From Clostridiales bacterium (GTDB lineage Bacteria > Bacillota > Clostridia > Christensenellales > Aristaeellaceae), in the NCBI GenBank assembly GCA_029012285.1, contig JAQXLU010000154.1, positions 1 to 64,000 of the forward strand: 64,000 bases of DNA, written 5' to 3'. The first letter of the stretch is position 1; each line of letters begins with the position of its first letter. A program made the position numbers and the translations under genes. The notes under the pieces were generated by a model that worked only from the letters and a program-made list of their open reading frames with translations, searched no databases and was not told the DNA's origin. Below, piece by piece: positions 21,967 to 31,969 of the stretch.

Positions 21967-22884
21967 TTAATCCTTCATGCCCGAGGTGGACATGGTCTCG
22001 ATGACGTTGGACTGGGAGATGACGAACACCGCCACAGGGACCAGCATCATGATGAGGGAAACCGCGGAGGAGACGCCGGTGCGTGCGATACCGCCGGACA
22101 CCAGCTGGCTGAGCACGTAGGACACGGGCTTGAGCTCCTCGGAGTAGATGAACACGCCGCCGGTGGTGCCCCACATCTGCTGGAAGGACAGGATGATCAG
22201 CGTGATCCAGGCGGGCTTGCACAGGGGCATGATGATCTTCCAGTAGATGGTGAACTCGTTGGCGCCGTCGATGGTGGCGGCCTCCAGCAGGGAGTCGGGG
22301 ATCTGGCCGATGAAGTTCTTCATCAGGTACAATCCCAGGGTGCCGCCGATGGCCGTGAGGATGACCGCCCAGTAGGTGTCCACCAGACCCAGGTAGGTCA
22401 TGATGAGGTAGTTGGGGATGGCGGTCACGGAGGAGGAGAACATCAGCGCGTACACGATCATCTCGCTCATCACCTTGGAGCCGGGGAAGGTGTACTTCGC
22501 CAGTGCGAAGGCTGCCAGCGACCCCAGCATCACCGTGCCCAGGGTGCCCAGACCCGTGATGACCGCGGTGTTGTAGATGTAGCGGGAAAGCGGCACGTCG
22601 AAGGACTCCAGGATGAAGCTCAGGTCGAAGAAGTTATCCAGCGTGGGGTTATCCACCGTCAGCCGGGGCGGGAAAATGAAGATCTCGCTCATGGGCTTGA
22701 AGGCGGACACCACGGTGTAAATCAGCGGGAACAGGGAAAACAGACCAAACAGACCCAGGAACACCATCAGCGAGATATCCACCGCCAGCGAGCGGCGGGT
22801 GCGCAGCTTTCTGCGGCGTAGCCATGCCCTCAGACCGGTCTTCTTGGGAGGCTTGGGGTAAAGACTCTTCTTTTTCTTTGCCAT
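21967..22884 (-). CDS. Carbohydrate ABC transporter permease, MalG type (first pair)
   Basis: The protein has 305 residues with six membrane helices. The EAA loop is IPDSLLEAATIDGANEFTIYWKIIMP. A basic N-terminal tail (KKKKSLYPKPPKKTGLRAW) precedes the first helix. It lies 14 bp after the MalF-type gene and 12 bp before the NHL gene. It should form a channel with the product of 22899-23804 and receive substrate from the adjacent binding protein. Confidence 0.92.
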   Translation of the reverse strand: MAKKKKSLYPKPPKKTGLRAWLRRRKLRTRRSLAVDISLMVFLGLFGLFSLFPLIYTVVSAFKPMSEIFIFPPRLTVDNPTLDNFFDLSFILESFDVPLSRYIYNTAVITGLGTLGTVMLGSLAAFALAKYTFPGSKVMSEMIVYALMFSSSVTAIPNYLIMTYLGLVDTYWAVILTAIGGTLGLYLMKNFIGQIPDSLLEAATIDGANEFTIYWKIIMPLCKPAWITLIILSFQQMWGTTGGVFIYSEELKPVSYVLSQLVSGGIARTGVSSAVSLIMMLVPVAVFVISQSNVIETMSTSGMKD

Positions 22885-22898
22885 TTTCTATCCCCTCC

Positions 22899-23804
22899 TT
22901 AACCGATCTTGCGCAGGACCTTCTGCACCAGGATGTTGCAGAACAGCATGAGCAGGAACAGGAACACAGCGATCGTACAGGCATAGCCCATCTCGTAGCG
23001 CAGATTGCCGTAGTCATGCAGGTGCGTCATGATGGTGTGGCCCGCATAGTTGACGGACGGGAAGCCAACCAGGTCCAGGGAGATCTGGCTGACGGAGAAC
23101 GAGTTGGTGATCTGCATCACCGCGCCGAACATCAGCTGGGGCTTCATTGCCGGGAGGGTGATGTACCACAGCTCCTGCCAGCGGTTCTTGATGCCCTCCA
23201 CCGCGCCAGCCTCGTACATCGCGCGATCCACGGTCTGCAGGCCTGCGATGAAGGATAGGAAGGACACGCCCAGGCTCATCCAGATCTGCACGATGATCAG
23301 GATGGGCATGATGTAGGCCTCTGTGGTCAGCCAGTAGATGGGCTCCTGCAGGATGCCCAGCTTCATCAGCCAGGCGTTGGCGTAGCCGTAGGTGTCGGAG
23401 GAGAAGATCAGCTTCCACACCAGGTACACATTGCCGGAGATGGAGGGCGCGTAGAACACCAGCGTCATGATGGCGCGGGGGATGCGCGGCAGCTCGTTGA
23501 TCAGCCAGGCAAAGAGGAAGCACATCAGGTAGGACAGCGGGCCCGTCAGGATGGCGAACACCATGGTGTTCTTGATGGCGGTGAGGAACACATCGTCCTC
23601 CACGATGAGGGTGATGTAGTTCGTAAGGCCAATCCAGTCAGGCATGGAGGTCATGTTAAAGGACGTGAAGCTCAGGAAAATGGCGGCGGCAACCGGCAGC
23701 ACCGTGAACAGGATGAACACGAGGGCGAAGGGAGCCACCATGAGATACTGATTGCGGTATTTCTTCATGGATGCGCCAAGCGGCAGCTTTTTTGCAGACG
23801 TCAT
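22899..23804 (-). CDS. Carbohydrate ABC transporter permease, MalF type (first pair)
   Basis: The protein has 301 residues and six membrane helices, starting with YLMVAPFALVFILFTVLPV. The EAA-type loop is VDRAMYEAGAVEGIKNRWQELWY. The ATG at 23804 has GGAGGGAG about 9 bp upstream. It is 15 bp after the second binding-protein gene. The pair 22899/21967 is complete and differs clearly from the pair 16296/15224, so it is not a recent duplication. Confidence 0.92.
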   Translation of the reverse strand: MTSAKKLPLGASMKKYRNQYLMVAPFALVFILFTVLPVAAAIFLSFTSFNMTSMPDWIGLTNYITLIVEDDVFLTAIKNTMVFAILTGPLSYLMCFLFAWLINELPRIPRAIMTLVFYAPSISGNVYLVWKLIFSSDTYGYANAWLMKLGILQEPIYWLTTEAYIMPILIIVQIWMSLGVSFLSFIAGLQTVDRAMYEAGAVEGIKNRWQELWYITLPAMKPQLMFGAVMQITNSFSVSQISLDLVGFPSVNYAGHTIMTHLHDYGNLRYEMGYACTIAVFLFLLMLFCNILVQKVLRKIG

Positions 23805-23819: not shown

Positions 23820-26747
23820 TTACTTGGCGGTATTGAGGCCGAATTCCTCACGCTTCTTGGTCAGCTCCTTGTCGATCTCGCGGATGTTGAGGTAGAGCGT
23901 CTCGCGGGGATTCGCCAGGTCAGCCACAACGTCCTCAAAGGCGTAGGAGATCATGCGGGTGTTCATGTAGTAGCCGGGCACGGCGGGCATGCTGATGAGC
24001 TTGTCATACTGGGACAGCAGCTGCGCGCTTTCGGCATTGGACCAGGGCAGGTTGCGGATCACATTGGGGTCAGCGGCGGGGTAACGGGCCGCAGCGCCCA
24101 TGATGGCCTCCAAGGTGGTGGCGTAGGAGGTCTGCTGGGGGGTGTCGTTCCACCACTTGACGAATTCCCAGGCGGCGTCCTTGTTGTCCGCACCCTTCAT
24201 GATCACGGTCTGCACGGTGTCGCAGACGTAGGTGTTGTCAATCGTGCCGTCCTCCTTCACAGAGCCGGGGAAGGCGGAGAAGCTCCACAGACCCTTGATT
24301 TCCGGCGCGAAGATTTCCAGCGTGCAGTAGGTGGTGTAGTCGGTCACGCCCACGGGCATTTCGCCGGTGCGGAAGCGGTTGGAGAAGTCCGCCTGCACCT
24401 CCAGGCCGTGCACGGTGAACAGATCGGTGTACCACTTGAAGGCCTCCATGGCGGGGTCCTCGTGGAGGGCGGAGGCAATGCCGTAAGTTGCACCCTCGCC
24501 CTCGTAGATTTCGCCCTCGTTCTGGTAGACCATGGCGGAGAACACGTTCAGGCCGGTCGCCACACGGGTGGAGGGCATGTAGAAGTCGTAGTTCTCGCGG
24601 TTGAGGACGGGGATCATCTCCATAATTTCCGTCCAGGTGGTGGGTACGTTCAGGCCCAGCTCATCCAGCACGTCCTTGCGGTAGAACAGCATCTGGAAGC
24701 TGACCTGCTCGGGGATGCCATACGCGCCATCGCAGTATTTGGTGGCGCGCAGCACACCCTGGGAGTAGCGCTGAACGTAGTCCGCATAGTCGGGGTACTG
24801 GGACAGATCGACCGTTGCGCCGCGCATGGCGAAGTCCTGGGCGGTGGCTTGGTTCAAGCCGATCACCACGTCAGGGCCGTTGCCAGCCAGGGCGGCGCGC
24901 AGCACCACATCCATGGGGATGAGCTGCAAGGTGACGGCAATGTCCGTGTTGGGGGAGAAGGTTTCGTCGATCAGGTTCTGAATGATCTGCGCCTGCTCGC
25001 GGCCGGCGGAGGCCATCCACACCTTGATGGAAGCGGCCTTCTTGCCGCCGTCATCGCTGGCGACCACGCTGCTGCTGGAGTGGAAGAACGTGGCCCAGAA
25101 GCGCTGGACGTCCGCGATGGCGCCCTGCAGCCAACCCTCGGTGGGGGCGGGGAGGGAGGCGGTGTCGCGGGAGAGCATCAGGCTATCCAATTCCAGGGGC
25201 ATGGTGGAGATGTTGACGATCCAGGTGCCCAGGGCGGAAATGTTGTTTTTCAGCTGGCTGAGCTCCTTGACGATGTTCTCCGGGTCCTTGGCAAGGCCCA
25301 ATGCCTGGATAGCCATCTTTTCGAGCATCGCGGTGTTCTCGCCCTTTTCGCCGGTGATGGCGACCATCTGATCCACCAGGGCGAAGAGGCGGTCGCTCTC
25401 CTGCTGCATGGTGCTGACGAAGCCAGGCACCTTCTTGGCGATCTCGTAGTCGATAAACTGGCTGGGCACATTGCCTGTGATCTGAATGGTGGACAGATAC
25501 AGGGCGTTGAGGTTGCGCAAGGCTTCCTCCACCTCGCTGAGCACGCCGCCGATGCCGCCCAGCACGCACTCCAGCTTGATGTCGTTCACGCCCTTGTGCA
25601 GGTAGACGTAGTAGGGCTCGCCCTTTTCGTTGGCGAGGGTGTAGTTCTGCATCTTGCCGGAGTAGTCAAAGCCAATGACCTCCGCCTCCGCGAAGGGCAC
25701 TGCGCCGTTGACGGACAAGCGGCGGTAGCTGGTCACGCCGCGGGAGGTCTGGCGGCCCTTGAAGGTCAGGACGTACAGACCGTCCTCCGGCGCTTCCACC
25801 TGCCAGGTGATGGCGTCGCCCGGCTGGGCCCAGTTGCTCGCGCCAATGGTCGGGTACAGGATGTGCCAGGCGTGGTAGGGCACCAGCGCCGCGTCAGAGT
25901 AGTTCTTCTGCACGGTGATGGCGGGGGAGGTTTTCAGAATGTCATAGGTGGCGTTGGGGACGGACAGCCGGGTACCCTCGCCCTCCTTGACGGCGCGGCG
26001 CTCGGCCTGGCACACGATGGCTTCGCCGCCATACTTTGTCCCTTCGGCTTCCCACTTCGCCAGCATGGCCTGGTAGCTGCTCTTTTCCGGCGCAGCCTTG
26101 AAGGTAAGCGTGATGACCTCCAGGGGCTCCTTGACCGCCTCGAAGGTCAGGGTGTGCTCGCCCGCGGTCAGGTAGAAGATCAGCGGCGCGCCGGAGCGGC
26201 GGTCGTAATCCTCCAGGTAGATGGTCTGGGTGGAGAACAACTCATCGGCGTTGGGACGAATCTCGTTGTCGTTCTTGAGATGGATGTCCTCGTCGCGCCA
26301 GATGCGCTTGAACACGATCTGCGTCAGCGCCTCATAGGGGGCTTCACCGTCGATGAGCACGCGGCGCTGAATGTCGCTGGTGGTGCCAGCCAGGGCGCGG
26401 TAGCACACCTCCAGGTTGAAAAAGCCGGTCTCCGGCACGGTGAACTTCCAGGTGATGGCGCCCATATCGCCGGTATCGACCCCCTCGGTCAGCGCCTGGG
26501 CGTTGGAGTCCGCACTCTTTTCAAAGGCGAACACATCCACCTCGGCCACGGCATCGGACAGCGCATCCGCATAGCTGTGGGCATCCAGGTACGCCTGGTA
26601 GGTCTTTTCACGGGCGATCACGGTTTCGGTGGCAGGCATGGCGTAATGTCCCTTGTCCTTGCCGCGCAGCGCGCTGACAAGAAGCACGGCGACCACGAGC
26701 ACGACGATCACACACAGCGCGATCAACAGTTTCTTTTTCTTGGTCAC
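23820..26747 (-). CDS. Membrane-anchored binding protein: CBM-like domains fused to a family 1 solute-binding domain
   Basis: I place the start at GTG 26747, which has AGAGGTGAG 7 bp upstream. The track start 90 bp earlier lies inside a structured leader. The 975-residue product begins MTKKKKLLIALCVIVV, a transmembrane anchor rather than a lipobox signal. Residues about 60-450 contain two beta-sandwich segments with carbohydrate-binding-module character (ETGFFNLEVCYRALAG; APEDGLYVLTFKGRQTSRG). A helical linker follows, and from about 570 to the end there is a periplasmic-binding-protein type 1 domain (IKVWMASAGREQAQIIQNLI, GNGPDVVIGLNQ, TWTEIMEMIPVLN). It probably captures oligosaccharides and hands them to the adjacent permeases. 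Confidence 0.85.
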   Translation of the reverse strand: MTKKKKLLIALCVIVVLVVAVLLVSALRGKDKGHYAMPATETVIAREKTYQAYLDAHSYADALSDAVAEVDVFAFEKSADSNAQALTEGVDTGDMGAITWKFTVPETGFFNLEVCYRALAGTTSDIQRRVLIDGEAPYEALTQIVFKRIWRDEDIHLKNDNEIRPNADELFSTQTIYLEDYDRRSGAPLIFYLTAGEHTLTFEAVKEPLEVITLTFKAAPEKSSYQAMLAKWEAEGTKYGGEAIVCQAERRAVKEGEGTRLSVPNATYDILKTSPAITVQKNYSDAALVPYHAWHILYPTIGASNWAQPGDAITWQVEAPEDGLYVLTFKGRQTSRGVTSYRRLSVNGAVPFAEAEVIGFDYSGKMQNYTLANEKGEPYYVYLHKGVNDIKLECVLGGIGGVLSEVEEALRNLNALYLSTIQITGNVPSQFIDYEIAKKVPGFVSTMQQESDRLFALVDQMVAITGEKGENTAMLEKMAIQALGLAKDPENIVKELSQLKNNISALGTWIVNISTMPLELDSLMLSRDTASLPAPTEGWLQGAIADVQRFWATFFHSSSSVVASDDGGKKAASIKVWMASAGREQAQIIQNLIDETFSPNTDIAVTLQLIPMDVVLRAALAGNGPDVVIGLNQATAQDFAMRGATVDLSQYPDYADYVQRYSQGVLRATKYCDGAYGIPEQVSFQMLFYRKDVLDELGLNVPTTWTEIMEMIPVLNRENYDFYMPSTRVATGLNVFSAMVYQNEGEIYEGEGATYGIASALHEDPAMEAFKWYTDLFTVHGLEVQADFSNRFRTGEMPVGVTDYTTYCTLEIFAPEIKGLWSFSAFPGSVKEDGTIDNTYVCDTVQTVIMKGADNKDAAWEFVKWWNDTPQQTSYATTLEAIMGAAARYPAADPNVIRNLPWSNAESAQLLSQYDKLISMPAVPGYYMNTRMISYAFEDVVADLANPRETLYLNIREIDKELTKKREEFGLNTAK

Positions 26748-26780
26748 GGGCCTTCTCACCTCTTTGGCGTAGTATGTGTC

Positions 26781-26866
26781 ATCGCTGCATAACGCGGGCT
26801 CCCAGGGGAAGCCCATGCAGCGTCCGACCAACTCCACTGCTTGTGGAGCCTGCGTTATGCAACGGT
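26781..26866 (-). ncRNA. Candidate structured leader RNA (three-way junction) before the CBM-SBP gene
   Basis: On the minus strand CGTTGCATAACGC (26864-26852) can pair with GCGTTATGCAGCG (26795-26783) over 13 bp with one G-U. The enclosed sequence holds two hairpins, CTCCA...TGGAG and GGGCT...AGCCC. A linker segment CGCTGCAT between them is complementary to the closing 3' arm (ATGCAGCG), which allows a competing fold. The element ends about 35 nt before the GTG start. No known riboswitch class is recognised. Confidence 0.5.
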
Positions 26867-26942
26867 GATGACCCCGCCCGCGGCGGAGCCCATGGGAGAT
26901 TTGCTCCCTTCATATCCGAGCTTTCCGGTTGGCTATGAACAA

Positions 26943-26983
26943 GGGCGGGCGCTATCAGGCCCCAGCCTTCTAACGCCCGCCCG
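26943..26983 (-). terminator. Hairpin, possible partial terminator after the first binding-protein gene
   Basis: GGGCGGGCG pairs with CGCCCGCCC, with further AGGC/GCCT pairing inside. The tail on the minus strand is only TTGTT, so termination may be incomplete and lower expression of downstream genes. Confidence 0.6.
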
Positions 26984-27015: not shown

Positions 27016-29016
27016 TTACTCGACGACGACCTCGACCTCGATGGCCACCTCAGCGGTGTTGCCAGCGTAGTCGGTCACGCTCAGGGTGACGGCGTAGGTC
27101 TCGGGCATAGAGGTGTCCAGCTCGGACATGTCAGCCACCACGTTCGCCTTCAGATCCAGACCGGAAGCGTCCTTCGCCTCAGCGATGAAGGCGGTCCAGT
27201 CAATGGTGGAGGCGTCGGTATCCATGGCGATGGTGGGCAGCTCTTCCACCACGGTCAGGGTGGGAGCGGTGGTGTTGGCGGGATCGTACACGATCACGTC
27301 CACCTTCGCGGAGCCCTCGTTGCCGGCCTTGTCGGTGAAGATGGCCTTGGCCTGGTAAGCGCCTGCGGCGGTCACGTCAACGCGGCCTTCCACCTCGTAC
27401 TTGGCCAGGGCGGGATCCAGCACGCCGTCGAAGCCGTCCTCGGCGGAGAAGTACTGGGTCCAGTCAATCGCGGACAGGTCGGAATTCATGGCCACGACCA
27501 CCTTGCCGCTCGCCTTGACGGCGGGGCCCTGGTTGTCGTTGAGCTCGCTGGAGCCCAGGATGGCTTCCATCTCGGTCACCACGTCGGTGAACTTGTTCAT
27601 GTTCGCCTTGATGGCCACTTCGTAGGAGGGGGTGCCTTCCACGCCGTACAGGCCCTTGCCCAGGATGCGATCCCAGGGATCACGCATGCCCAGGTTGCCG
27701 GACACGTCGTTGGGCACGCACTTTTCAGAGTTGAAGATGAAGGCGTTCAGCACACCCTCGCCGTAGGTATCGTTGAAGATGTCCAGGCCGTACTTGGTCG
27801 CCTCGTCCTTGGCGACGGCAGCCTTGTACTGGTCCATGGAGTCAACGCCGGCCTTGAGGGAGTAGTAGGTCTCCCAGTAGGTGCGGTAGGATTCCAGGGC
27901 CAGCTTGGTCATTTCGGGGGAGATGCCCTTCAGCACGCCGTCGACGTCGCCCACAGAGATGACCTGGCGGTACTCGGGGGAGTAGGTGACGGAGCCGTCG
28001 GCGTTCTTGGTGACCAGGCGGTCAGCAGCGGGCCAGGGCATGATGGCGATGGACTCGCCGCGCTTGGCGCACTCGTCAGCCTGACCCTTGATGACCCAGA
28101 TGGGGCACTCGGCAAAGACGGAGTTGCCACGGCCGAAGTCGTAGCCGCACTCGCACCACTGGGGGGTGTAGCCGTCATCGTACACGCCGCAGTCCACCAT
28201 CACGCCAGCCTCGCGCAGCTCAACGATGAACTTGATGGCGTCGATGGATTCCTGGGAATCAGCGATGATGCCCTTGTCGCCGTAGATGCCGCCGCCGTTG
28301 GAGTACATGGCGGACATGGAGGCGAAGCGGTGATCGGTTTCATAAGCCATCTTAGTGGAGACCTTCGCGCCTTCCACAGCGGGCTCATTGCCGTAGTGGG
28401 CCTGAATCTTCTGCAGGTAGGCCTTGAAGTTGGACCAGGTCCACTCGCCGCGCTCGAGCATCTCCATGGGGTAGAGGGTGGTGCCATCGGCTTCCTTGAG
28501 CGCGTCCACCTGCTCCAGCATGGTCAGGTTGACCAGCAGGGTGAAGTACTGGTTGAAGGAGATGTTGGCGTTGACGAAGTAGTTGTGGCCGAACACGGCA
28601 GTGGGCCACATCCAGTCAGCACCCTCAAAGATGGACGCATAATCGTCCAGGGGCTGCAGGATGTTCTGCGCCAGCACGGTGTTCTCGGAGCCGGACCACA
28701 TACGGGCGACTTCGCACACGGGGTTGCCGGCCAGCACGGACAGCACCAGCTCGGAGCGGGTGTCCTGCGCGTACTGCACATGCACGATCTTCACGTTGTG
28801 CTTGTCCAGCACAGCCTTTTCAGCAGCCAGACGTAGCTGACGATCAGCCTCGTCGGTGATGGTGTACTTGCCGGTGGTCTCGTCGATCTGGTTGGGATCC
28901 TGACCCGCGGCCCAGTGAGTGCCCCAGCGGACAATGATGGGCTCTTCGGCGGATGCCATGGGCACCAGCGTGAGAACCATTGCCAGCGCCAGCAGCAGGG
29001 CGGCAAACTTCTTCAT
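27016..29016 (-). CDS. Secreted sugar-binding protein with two C-terminal Ig-like domains
   Basis: The protein has 666 residues and a signal peptide ending LVPMASAEE, without a lipobox Cys. Residues 25-500 form a family 1 extracellular solute-binding protein (VLDKHNVKIVHVQY, NPVCEVARMWSGSENTVLAQ, LERGEWTWSNFKAYLQKI). Two tandem Ig-like, DUF5011-type domains follow at about 505-585 and 590-666, each ending in a pattern like DKAGNEGSAKVDV or DYAGNTAEVAIEV. It is the first gene of the long operon, with AAAGGAGG 7 bp before the ATG. The Ig-like domains may hold it at the cell wall in place of a lipid anchor. It may serve the second permease pair. Confidence 0.88.
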   Translation of the reverse strand: MKKFAALLLALAMVLTLVPMASAEEPIIVRWGTHWAAGQDPNQIDETTGKYTITDEADRQLRLAAEKAVLDKHNVKIVHVQYAQDTRSELVLSVLAGNPVCEVARMWSGSENTVLAQNILQPLDDYASIFEGADWMWPTAVFGHNYFVNANISFNQYFTLLVNLTMLEQVDALKEADGTTLYPMEMLERGEWTWSNFKAYLQKIQAHYGNEPAVEGAKVSTKMAYETDHRFASMSAMYSNGGGIYGDKGIIADSQESIDAIKFIVELREAGVMVDCGVYDDGYTPQWCECGYDFGRGNSVFAECPIWVIKGQADECAKRGESIAIMPWPAADRLVTKNADGSVTYSPEYRQVISVGDVDGVLKGISPEMTKLALESYRTYWETYYSLKAGVDSMDQYKAAVAKDEATKYGLDIFNDTYGEGVLNAFIFNSEKCVPNDVSGNLGMRDPWDRILGKGLYGVEGTPSYEVAIKANMNKFTDVVTEMEAILGSSELNDNQGPAVKASGKVVVAMNSDLSAIDWTQYFSAEDGFDGVLDPALAKYEVEGRVDVTAAGAYQAKAIFTDKAGNEGSAKVDVIVYDPANTTAPTLTVVEELPTIAMDTDASTIDWTAFIAEAKDASGLDLKANVVADMSELDTSMPETYAVTLSVTDYAGNTAEVAIEVEVVVE

Positions 29017-29314: not shown

Positions 29315-31057
29315 TTACCCAAGATCGGGGGCATCCACCAGCAAAACCTTGCCATGCTTGCCCTCGGTTTCCACGATGATGAGGGTGTTCTCGCCCTCAC
29401 GCAGCAATGGCGCGGGGATGTACAGCCGCTTTTGCGGGCCGATCTCCCAGAAGCGCCCCAGGCAGAAGCCGTTGAGCGTGACAACGCCCTTGCCCCAGCC
29501 GGGCAGCTCCAGCCAGGTATCGGCGGGTTCATCCACGTTGAAGGTGAACTGATGCACGCCGGGCACGACCGCGGGCGTCCTGCCTTCGGGCCGGAAGGCG
29601 GCCATGACCTGCTCGTCGCACACGAACATGTCCCAGCCAAACTTCTGATGATCGTTGATCACCACGCCGGAGTCGATGCCCTTGCGCTGGTGTTCCAGCT
29701 TGAAGGAGTAGTTCACGCGGCCCATGTTCTCCATCAGGATCTCCAGGCGCGCGCCCTTGCGCACCGGGATGGCGGGTTTGAATTCGTGGGCCTTCTCCAG
29801 GTCGTGGTCGTAGAGGGTGGCGATGATCTCGCCGTCCAGCAGGATCACCGCGCGGTCGTTGGCGGAAACCAGCTGGAGCTTGCGCAGCTCGTCCTCATTG
29901 GTCAGCACGGTGCTGTACAGGGTGTAGCCGTAGTTCTGGCCCAGGCGCTCCATGGACATGGGGCAGACGCTGTGGACGCGCTTGCCCTTTGTCAGCAGCT
30001 GGCACAGGGGAGCGGAGGCAACCTCTGCAGCCTCGCCGTAGGCGCGGCGCGGAATCTCCGGGATGTCGATGATGGGCGCGGGGCCCTTGCGTGCTTCAAT
30101 CGCGGCCTTGAACAGGCGGTACTTTTCGGTGATGCGACCATCCTCGGTCAAAAGCGCGTCGTAGTCGTAGCTGGTTACGTCGGGGGTGAGGCGGTCGTAA
30201 TAGTTCGCGCCGTTCATCAGCCCGAAGGACGTGCCGCCGTGGAACATGTAGATGTTGATGTGCCCCATGTCCAGGATATCTGCAAAGTCCTTGGCGGAGG
30301 CGGCTGCGTCGGTATGGGCGTGCTTGCCGCAGCCCCAGTGGTCGAACCAACCGCACCAGAATTCCATGCACATCAGCGGGGTGATGCCCATTTCCTTCAT
30401 GTAGCCGAAGCGCTCATGGGCGTGCGAGCCGAAGTTGCCGGTCTGGAACACGCCCTCGCATTTGCCGCAGGCGAGCATGTCGTGCTCCGGGCCGTCGGAG
30501 GTGACCAGGGGCACGTCGATGCCGCGCTGGATCATCCCGTCCCGCAGGATGGCGAGGTACTCCTTGTCGTCGCCATAGGAGCCGTACTCGTTTTCCACCT
30601 GCATCATGATGATGGGGCCGCCGTGGGTGATCTGCAGCGGCGCAAGGCGGGGCAGCAGCTCGTCAAAGTAGGCGAGGAACTCCTTCAAATAGGGTTCGTA
30701 GCAGCAGCGGAAGCGCATGCCGTCCTGGGCCAGCAGCCAGGCGGGGAAGCCGCCGAACTCCCATTCGGCACAAATGTAGGGCGAGGGGCGGATGATGACC
30801 CACAGCCCCAGCTCCTGGGCGATGCGGATGAAACGGCACACATCGTGATCGCCCTCAAAGTTGAATTCTCCCCGGTTGGGCTCATGGAAATTCCAGGGGA
30901 TGTAGGTTTCCACCGTGTTGCAGCCCATGGCCTTGAGCTTGAGCAGCCGGTCACGCCAGTATTCGGGCACGACGCGGAAATAATGGATGGAGCCGGAAAT
31001 GACCTGGAATCTTTCGCCGTTCAGATAGAAATCGTCCTTGATCTCAAAATTGCCCAT
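29315..31057 (-). CDS. Glycoside hydrolase family 35 beta-galactosidase
   Basis: The protein has 580 residues with no signal peptide. The GH35 barrel is recognisable from SGSIHYFRVVPEYWRDRL, NTVETYIPWNFHEP and GLWVIIRPSPYICAEWEFGG. The acid/base Glu is in MMQVENEYGSYG (about 156) and the nucleophile Glu in MCMEFWCGWFDHWG (about 232). C-terminal jelly-roll domains follow (GWGKGVVTLNGFCLGRFWEIGP). It releases beta-linked galactose from imported oligosaccharides in the cytosol. Start ATG at 31057 has CGGAGGAT 7 bp upstream. It follows the GH43 gene by 48 bp and may have an extra promoter of its own. Confidence 0.94.
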   Translation of the reverse strand: MGNFEIKDDFYLNGERFQVISGSIHYFRVVPEYWRDRLLKLKAMGCNTVETYIPWNFHEPNRGEFNFEGDHDVCRFIRIAQELGLWVIIRPSPYICAEWEFGGFPAWLLAQDGMRFRCCYEPYLKEFLAYFDELLPRLAPLQITHGGPIIMMQVENEYGSYGDDKEYLAILRDGMIQRGIDVPLVTSDGPEHDMLACGKCEGVFQTGNFGSHAHERFGYMKEMGITPLMCMEFWCGWFDHWGCGKHAHTDAAASAKDFADILDMGHINIYMFHGGTSFGLMNGANYYDRLTPDVTSYDYDALLTEDGRITEKYRLFKAAIEARKGPAPIIDIPEIPRRAYGEAAEVASAPLCQLLTKGKRVHSVCPMSMERLGQNYGYTLYSTVLTNEDELRKLQLVSANDRAVILLDGEIIATLYDHDLEKAHEFKPAIPVRKGARLEILMENMGRVNYSFKLEHQRKGIDSGVVINDHQKFGWDMFVCDEQVMAAFRPEGRTPAVVPGVHQFTFNVDEPADTWLELPGWGKGVVTLNGFCLGRFWEIGPQKRLYIPAPLLREGENTLIIVETEGKHGKVLLVDAPDLG

Positions 31058-31081
31058 GCGCGTATCCTCCGTATATGCAAT

Positions 31082-31087
31082 ATTATA
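31082..31087 (-). promoter_or_regulatory. Possible -10 box before GH35
   Basis: A perfect TATAAT occurs on the minus strand in the 48-bp gap, but no good -35 box stands at the right distance. Confidence 0.3.
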
Positions 31088-31105
31088 ATGTAGAAATCCG
31101 TTCGC

Positions 31106-31969
31106 TCACCTGCGGTGGAGCAAGCCGTCCTCCTCGACCACCTCGAAGAAATAGGGGCGCTCCTGCAAATGGGTGTTGGGGCTGTGCAGCGCCATCAGCA
31201 GCTTGCCCTCCTTGGTGCGGAAGATCATGCCGTGTCCGCCGTCCTTCATGAACAGGGGCTTGACCTGGCGGAACTCGCCGGTGATTTCCCCGTTGGAGCT
31301 GCGGGCCAGGCCTTGGGTGTAGCCGTCCTTGGAGAAGGCGGCCCAGAGCATCAGCAGCGCGCCGTCCTCATTGCGCCACAGGAACGGGCCGTCGGTCACG
31401 AAGGAGGGCTTGCCCATCACGGACCGACCGGGGACGATCCATTCCGCCTCGGAGGCGGTGAAGAGCAGCCGGGGCGGGCCTGCTGGGGCCCTCAGGTCGT
31501 CGTCAAGCGCCATGGCCCAGATTTCGCCGTCGATGGCCTGTACCCACTCGTGGCAGAACACCATGTAGGGCTTGCCCTCCCTGTCCACATAGAAGGTGCC
31601 GTCCAGGCACTCCCAGTTGCGGGGGGTGACAGGGCCGTCGCTGTGGGGGACGAAGGGCCCCATGGGGCTGTCTGCCCGGAGGATGCAGCTGCCGCGGCAA
31701 GCGTCCTCCGATTTGAAGGAGGCGAACATGTAGAACGCCCCGTGCCAGATGTGCACCTCGGGAGCCCAGTAGTTCATGGTGGCCCAGAAGGAGCCGTCGT
31801 TGTGGAACACCTCATGCGGGCCGGACCAGTTTTCCAGGTCGTCGGAAACATACACGTCAAAGCCGTCGTCCTCGCCCCAGCAGGTGGCCCCCCGGGTGCC
31901 GTAGAGGTAGTACTTCCCCTCATGCAGCAGCACAAAGGGATCCCGGATGTTGATGTCAGAGAGCTTCAT
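31106..31969 (-). CDS. Glycoside hydrolase family 43-like enzyme
   Basis: The protein has 287 residues, compact for GH43. The catalytic Asp is near the start (NIRDPFVLLHEGKYYLYG). Other propeller motifs are MNYWAPEVHIWHGAFYMFAS, ECLDGTFYVDREGKPYMV, FCHEWVQA and VTDGPFLWRNEDG. It has no signal peptide. It resembles the GH43 at 11156-12205 in blade order and motifs and is probably a paralogue with different side-chain specificity, for example for arabinose or galactose. Its promoter lies in the gap shared with the divergent heparinase gene. The AAGGAGG ribosome binding site is 13 bp from the ATG, rather far. Cotranscription with GH35 is likely. Confidence 0.87.
   Translation of the reverse strand: MKLSDINIRDPFVLLHEGKYYLYGTRGATCWGEDDGFDVYVSDDLENWSGPHEVFHNDGSFWATMNYWAPEVHIWHGAFYMFASFKSEDACRGSCILRADSPMGPFVPHSDGPVTPRNWECLDGTFYVDREGKPYMVFCHEWVQAIDGEIWAMALDDDLRAPAGPPRLLFTASEAEWIVPGRSVMGKPSFVTDGPFLWRNEDGALLMLWAAFSKDGYTQGLARSSNGEITGEFRQVKPLFMKDGGHGMIFRTKEGKLLMALHSPNTHLQERPYFFEVVEEDGLLHRR

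What the first reader, a model, noticed from the sequence alone, without database searches (positions are those of the whole stretch)
26781..26866. Switch-like leader RNA upstream of the CBM-SBP gene
A 13-bp closing helix, two inner hairpins and a linker that can pair with the closing 3' arm give two mutually exclusive folds. This is the layout of a riboswitch or a regulated leader, and I cannot match it to a known class.
Basis: partly seen in the sequence, partly recalled or inferred. Interest (0 to 1): 0.6.

Follow-up and report, generated by a model that had tools for sequence, protein, structure and literature searches.

The report
Conserved stem-loop inside a sugar-transport operon
Between two genes of a sugar-uptake operon in a gut Clostridia bacterium sits a strong RNA stem-loop kept in its three closest relatives, most likely a part that helps set how much of each transporter protein is made rather than a metabolite-sensing switch.

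Summary
On the minus strand (the sense of the CBM-SBP gene), window 26778-26869 holds a 24-nt inverted repeat with a 13-bp uninterrupted core, ending 30 nt before the GTG start. It is single-copy in its genome and matches no Rfam family. It occurs at the same place in three congeners: two with arms 48/49 identical, one with 41/49 identical, two double changes that keep pairing, and a larger loop. Fourfold-degenerate codon sites there are only 63-72% identical and flanks 38-46%, so the arms are under selection. Orthologous operons at about 71% protein identity lack it.

It is not the 5' leader of a gene with its own visible promoter. It lies between an SBP-like gene and the CBM-SBP/permease genes, in an operon order kept into Lachnospiraceae, downstream of a conserved terminator-like stem-loop (26943-26982). 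That matches the published intercistronic stem-loops that set ABC-importer and cellulosome stoichiometry in Clostridia.

The alternative pairing (linker CGCUGCAU with the 3' arm) exists in all four sequences but is 6-12 kcal/mol weaker. The inner hairpins are barely above chance, and the conserved part is the helix, not a junction. A riboswitch is therefore not supported, though not excluded. Most likely: a clade-specific intercistronic stability/processing hairpin.

The parts
26778..26869 (-). SL2: the conserved intercistronic stem-loop (the finding), 92 nt
   Evidence: CM hit 92.7 bits, only copy in the genome; MFE -49.0 kcal/mol
26852..26869 (-). 5' arm of the closing helix P1 (ATCACCGTTGCATAACGC)
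   Evidence: the repeat finder I2; positions 2-25 of the element identical in G016 and G017
26778..26795 (-). 3' arm of the closing helix P1 (GCGTTATGCAGCGATGAC)
   Evidence: the repeat finder I2; last 25 nt of the element 24/25 identical in G016 and G017
26830..26850 (-). inner hairpin P2 (GGCTCCAC aagca GTGGAGTT); its first six bases can instead extend P1
   Evidence: the inner region is only marginally above shuffles
26815..26822 (-). linker CGCTGCAT, perfectly complementary to ATGCAGCG of the 3' arm (26783-26790); alternative helix P4
   Evidence: GCTGCATGGRCT shared by G000, G016 and G017
26796..26814 (-). inner hairpin P3 (GGGCTTCC cct GGGAGCCC); its 3' side can instead extend P1
   Evidence: GGGCU/AGCCC here versus GGACU/AGUCC in G016 and G017 keeps pairing
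26756..26763 (-). Shine-Dalgarno-like AGAGGTGA, 8 nt before the GTG start
   Evidence: sequence..RGGTGA...CCCGTGACC kept in orthologues
23820..26747 (-). CBM-SBP gene; start GTG at 26747 (not the mechanical ORF start at 26837), about 975 aa, SBP_bac_1 at residues 588-873
   Evidence: Pfam; weak CBM35-type match to 5x7g; start position from orthologue alignment
26943..26982 (-). SL1: terminator-like stem-loop after the upstream gene, with a weak U tract (TTGTTC)
   Evidence: -32.9 kcal/mol; 11 orthologues, 93% of cells paired, one G-C/C-G exchange
27016..29016 (-). upstream gene: secreted solute-binding-like protein with C-terminal Ig-like domain
   Evidence: PF16403; low-confidence AF2 model (pLDDT 66) with many maltose-binding-protein-type PDB matches
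22899..23804 (-). ABC permease 1 (BPD_transp_1, below Pfam cut-off)
21967..22884 (-). ABC permease 2 (BPD_transp_1)

Best explanation
It is an intercistronic RNA stem-loop (SL2) in the polycistronic mRNA SBP1 - SL1 - SL2 - CBM-SBP - permease - permease - NHL - Yip1. SL1 acts as a leaky internal terminator and/or 3' cap of the abundant SBP1 mRNA. SL2, 24 bp long, without a U tract and ending 14 nt before the Shine-Dalgarno, lies at the 5' end of the downstream message made by read-through or cleavage between the two stem-loops. There it protects or defines that end and possibly serves as the endoribonuclease (RNase Y or III) signal, so the pair sets the ratio of SBP1 to the CBM-SBP/permease. 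The near-invariant arms suggest that something (nuclease or RNA-binding protein) reads the helix by sequence; the linker:3'-arm pairing is probably a folding intermediate. Shown: the structure, its conservation, position, operon context and clade restriction. Inferred: transcription as one unit, cleavage, stabilisation, dosage effect.
For: Operon order SBP1-SBP2-perm1-perm2-NHL-Yip1 is conserved from congeners to Lachnospiraceae where the contig extends far enough. SL1 is conserved in 11 orthologues. The intergenic region folds far better than shuffles in near orthologues (z -3.8 to -7.1 for most at 70% identity or more), although the second stem-loop differs in sequence between clades (SL2 here, another hairpin in G006/G010), as expected if structure and position matter. 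SL2 arms are much more conserved than fourfold sites (P = 2e-6, 1e-7, 1e-3 under a simple binomial). Two double changes keep pairing. No promoter-like site was found between SL1 and the gene. Published precedent: stem-loops downstream of SBP genes terminate or stabilise with 20.7-96.1% efficiency (PMC9045158), and paired stem-loops flanking cleavage sites protect both ends of processed mRNA in R. cellulolyticum (PMC10311766).
Against: No transcript data: cleavage, termination and dosage are not shown. Published intercistronic stem-loops do not conserve sequence, whereas these arms are almost invariant, so a generic stability role does not explain the sequence constraint. SL2 is missing from orthologous operons at about 71% identity, so it is dispensable for this operon type. 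Only 2 of 23 pairs show double changes and the shuffle control is weak (33/500).
Confidence: 0.5

Rival explanations
1. A switching leader (riboswitch-like or protein-responsive). P1 closed is one state. In the other, the linker pairs with the 3' arm and frees the 5' arm, whose GUCAC can pair with the GUGAC start region and shut translation.
For: The alternative linker:3'-arm helix exists in all four sequences and only for the 3' arm; with P1 forbidden, the predicted fold pairs (G)UCAC with the GUGA(C) start codon region in all four; the linker GCUGCAUGG is kept in three although the rest of the loop is not.
Against: P1 wins by 6-12 kcal/mol; predicted accessibility at the Shine-Dalgarno hardly changes between folds except in G011; no conserved junction; loop 36-79 nt and variable; only one genus; statistics weak in the relatives (41, 92 and 96 of 1000 shuffles).
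Confidence: 0.17
2. A DNA inverted repeat bound by a transcription factor or nucleoid protein, the two arms being two inverted sites.
For: The arms are conserved as sequence, including the invariant C.A and U.G positions, more than a structure alone requires.
Against: Arm spacing is not phased (element lengths 86, 88, 92, 129 nt); pairing between arms is kept by double changes; near-matches to the arm elsewhere in the four genomes are scattered and form no second inverted pair; no promoter nearby.
Confidence: 0.13
3. A palindromic mobile or repetitive element (REP/MITE or attC-like) that landed in the intergenic gap of one clade.
For: Restricted to one clade; long gapped inverted repeat; other repeats of this sort exist in the genome (L069).
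Against: Single copy in the genome; no RAYT transposase; no integron integrase over cut-off, the weak hits being as in all control genomes; arms under purifying selection; no unpaired central spacer of an attC site.
Confidence: 0.05

Closest known systems
Internal intrinsic terminators downstream of SBP genes in ABC-importer operons of cellulolytic Clostridia (PMC9045158)
   Same: Same operon position (after the first SBP-like gene, before the translocator genes), long GC-rich stem, poor U tract; fits SL1 well.
   Different: SL2 has no U tract at all, a 36-79 nt enclosed part, lies next to the downstream ribosome-binding site, and its arms are conserved in sequence.
Selective RNA processing and stabilisation stem-loops, cip-cel operon of R. 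cellulolyticum (PMC4423207, PMC10311766)
   Same: Two consecutive stem-loops in one intergenic region, positioned to protect the 3' end of the upstream and the 5' end of the downstream processed mRNA.
   Different: Cleavage untested here; published stem-loops are not conserved in primary sequence, these arms are; the linker:3'-arm alternative pairing is extra.
Riboswitches / regulated leaders
   Same: Structured RNA just before a ribosome-binding site with an alternative pairing.
   Different: No Rfam match, no conserved unpaired core, intercistronic rather than 5' leader, one genus only.

Membership tests
Riboswitch (known classes in Rfam 15) | match to a curated aptamer covariance model | tested here: not met
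   Nothing at gathering threshold in the window's leader region or in L039, L040, L049; permissive scan gives only chance-level hits
Riboswitch (any) | conserved aptamer core (unpaired/junction nucleotides) across lineages | tested here: not met
   Enclosed region varies 36-79 nt and 41-64% identity; helix arms are the conserved part; one genus only
Riboswitch (any) | expression platform: alternative fold that changes SD accessibility or a terminator | tested here: inconclusive
   Alternative fold exists but is 6-12 kcal/mol weaker; SD accessibility changes clearly only in G011; start codon pairing possible
Riboswitch (any) | ligand binding | not testable with these tools
   needs probing experiments
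Internal intrinsic terminator of ABC-importer operons | GC-rich stem followed by a U-rich tract | tested here: not met
   SL2 is followed by ACACATACTACG on the sense strand; SL1 has the stem and a weak U tract
Internal intrinsic terminator of ABC-importer operons | lies between an SBP gene and the translocator genes | tested here: met
   Order SBP1-SL1-SL2-SBP2-permeases, conserved; SBP nature of SBP1 rests on a low-confidence model with MBP-type matches
SRPS stem-loop | strong stem-loop in an intergenic region inside a polycistronic operon | tested here: met
   MFE -49.0 kcal/mol; intergenic z -5.7; conserved gene order
SRPS stem-loop | endoribonucleolytic cleavage at or near the stem-loop and differential mRNA stability | not testable with these tools
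   no RNA-seq available
REP/MITE repeat | multiple dispersed copies and/or RAYT transposase | tested here: not met
   single copy, no Y1_Tnp
Integron attC site | imperfect hairpin with unpaired central spacer, with an integron integrase in the genome | tested here: not met
   13-bp uninterrupted core; no integrase over the family cut-off

The most novel reading that the evidence does not exclude
A previously undescribed, genus-restricted regulatory RNA: a helix read by sequence by a dedicated RNA-binding protein or nuclease, with a co-transcriptional P1/P4 switch that masks or exposes the GUG start codon of a CBM-SBP gene, layered on the standing SL1 attenuator of ABC-importer operons.
Probability: 0.15. 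Interest if true: 0.55.

Novelty: new variant of a known kind. Interest (0 to 1): 0.3.

Why it matters
If the stability/processing reading is right, it shows that the stem-loop stoichiometry control described in cellulolytic clostridia extends to uncultured rumen and gut Clostridia, and that the second stem-loop of such a pair is replaced between clades while the first is kept. The unusual point is that both arms of the helix are constrained in sequence, which generic stem-loop protection does not require and which makes recognition by a specific protein testable.

Tried and rejected
Rfam at gathering and permissive thresholds: nothing. Repetitive-element reading: single copy, no RAYT, no integron integrase. 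Operator reading: arm near-matches scattered, no phasing. A covariance model from the four sequences found no further member in 300 genomes of the family (stricter filters, so weak relatives could be missed). Pattern scan of viral contigs: one chance match of a single arm in a phage contig. Terminator reading of SL2: no U tract on either strand. Shine-Dalgarno masking by the alternative fold: not seen except partly in G011; only a start-codon pairing appears. An attempt to constrain folds with hard base-pair bans gave unusable structures and was redone with soft penalties. Pfam scans of the CBM-SBP N-terminus failed on frame and were not pursued.

Full report
Observation. The CBM-SBP gene lies on the minus strand; its start is the GTG at 26747, preceded by AGAGGTGA, not the mechanical ORF start at 26837. 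On that strand 26778-26869 reads ATCACCGTTGCATAACGC-A-GGCTCC...GGAGCC-C-GCGTTATGCAGCGATGAC. The repeat finder gives it as arms 26779-26802 / 26845-26868, 24 nt, 88% complementary. The 13-bp helix, the inner hairpins and the linker of the finding are all there.

Relatives. The element occurs in three of the 17 other held genomes of the genus, always at the same place: G016, G017 (same arms) and G011 (diverged arms, enclosed part 79 nt). A covariance model finds no other copy in 300 family genomes and none elsewhere in its own genome. Orthologous operons at about 71% protein identity (G006, G010, L042, L044-L046, L048) lack it; G006 and G010 have a different long hairpin at the same place. The organisms are ruminant rumen and gut Clostridia MAGs.

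Selection. Arms of the element are 48/49, 48/49 and 41/49 identical to G016, G017 and G011, while fourfold-degenerate sites of the downstream gene are 72, 67 and 63% identical and the sequence between SL1 and SL2 38-46%. So the arms are constrained. Two of 23 pairs change on both sides and stay paired, both in G011; 97.8% of cells pair against 25-53% when the partner is slid. Constancy extends to an invariant C.A mismatch and a U.G pair, which structure alone would not demand. The fourfold comparison is a simple yardstick in GC-rich genes, not a neutral model.

Alternative fold. The linker CGCTGCAT can pair perfectly with ATGCAGCG of the 3' arm. The duplex energy beats shuffled loops in the window (2/1000), less so in the relatives (41, 92, 96 of 1000), and not for the 5' arm. 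Three of these four share the linker by descent. With P1 forbidden, the best fold is 6.3-12.4 kcal/mol worse in ensemble energy. The predicted Shine-Dalgarno state is similar in both folds except in G011; in the P1-free fold the 5' end (G)UCAC pairs with the GUGA(C) at the start codon in all four. This is a testable idea, not evidence of a switch.

Context. tblastn shows SBP1 - SBP2 - permease - permease - NHL - Yip1 in the same order in congeners and, at 46-81% identity, in Lachnospiraceae, wherever the contig extends far enough. So the element is intercistronic. SL1 (26943-26982) follows the SBP1 stop in 11 orthologues with 93% of cells paired and carries a weak U tract. SBP1 has an Ig-like C-terminus; its low-confidence model matches maltose-binding proteins among others, consistent with a solute-binding protein. 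No promoter-like site was found here, though that scan covers only sigma-70-type consensus.

Reading. Stem-loops downstream of SBP genes act as leaky internal terminators in cellulolytic Clostridia (PMC9045158), and double stem-loops flank cleavage sites and protect both mRNA ends in the cip-cel operon (PMC10311766; PMC4423207). SL1 fits the first. SL2, lacking a U tract and placed just before the ribosome-binding site, fits a 5'-protecting or processing-signal stem-loop. Its sequence constancy goes beyond that precedent and suggests recognition by a protein. A riboswitch is not supported: no Rfam match, no conserved core, dominant closing helix, one genus. It is not formally excluded.

Limits. 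Four sequences from incomplete MAGs; no transcript data; the family search used strict filters; no metagenome scan was available.

Noticed in passing
window 26943-26982 (-): Terminator-like stem-loop SL1 after the upstream SBP-like gene, conserved in 11 orthologues with a nested inner hairpin; probably an internal terminator of the ABC-importer operon.
   Followed up: yes
L044 and L046, the ~300 nt upstream of 5001: Orthologous intergenic regions carry other very long inverted repeats (L044: GTGAAGAGTTCAGAGTTCAG / CTGAACTCTGAACTCTTCAC), possibly inserted repeat elements.
   Followed up: no
L069:1779-2028 (G000 contig C1): Tandem inverted copies of AGGCTCCCTCC..GAGGGAGCTG, a REP-like palindromic repeat.
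   Followed up: no
G006:C47:19754-19816 and G010:C42:3537-3580: A different hairpin (CCCGGAGCC..GGGGCTCCGGG) occupies the SL2 position in the sister clade; it too contains an inner segment that can pair with its own 5' arm.
   Followed up: partly
window 29315-31969 (-): GH35 beta-galactosidase and GH43 genes next to the operon, hinting at a galactose/arabinose-containing oligosaccharide as substrate.
   Followed up: no
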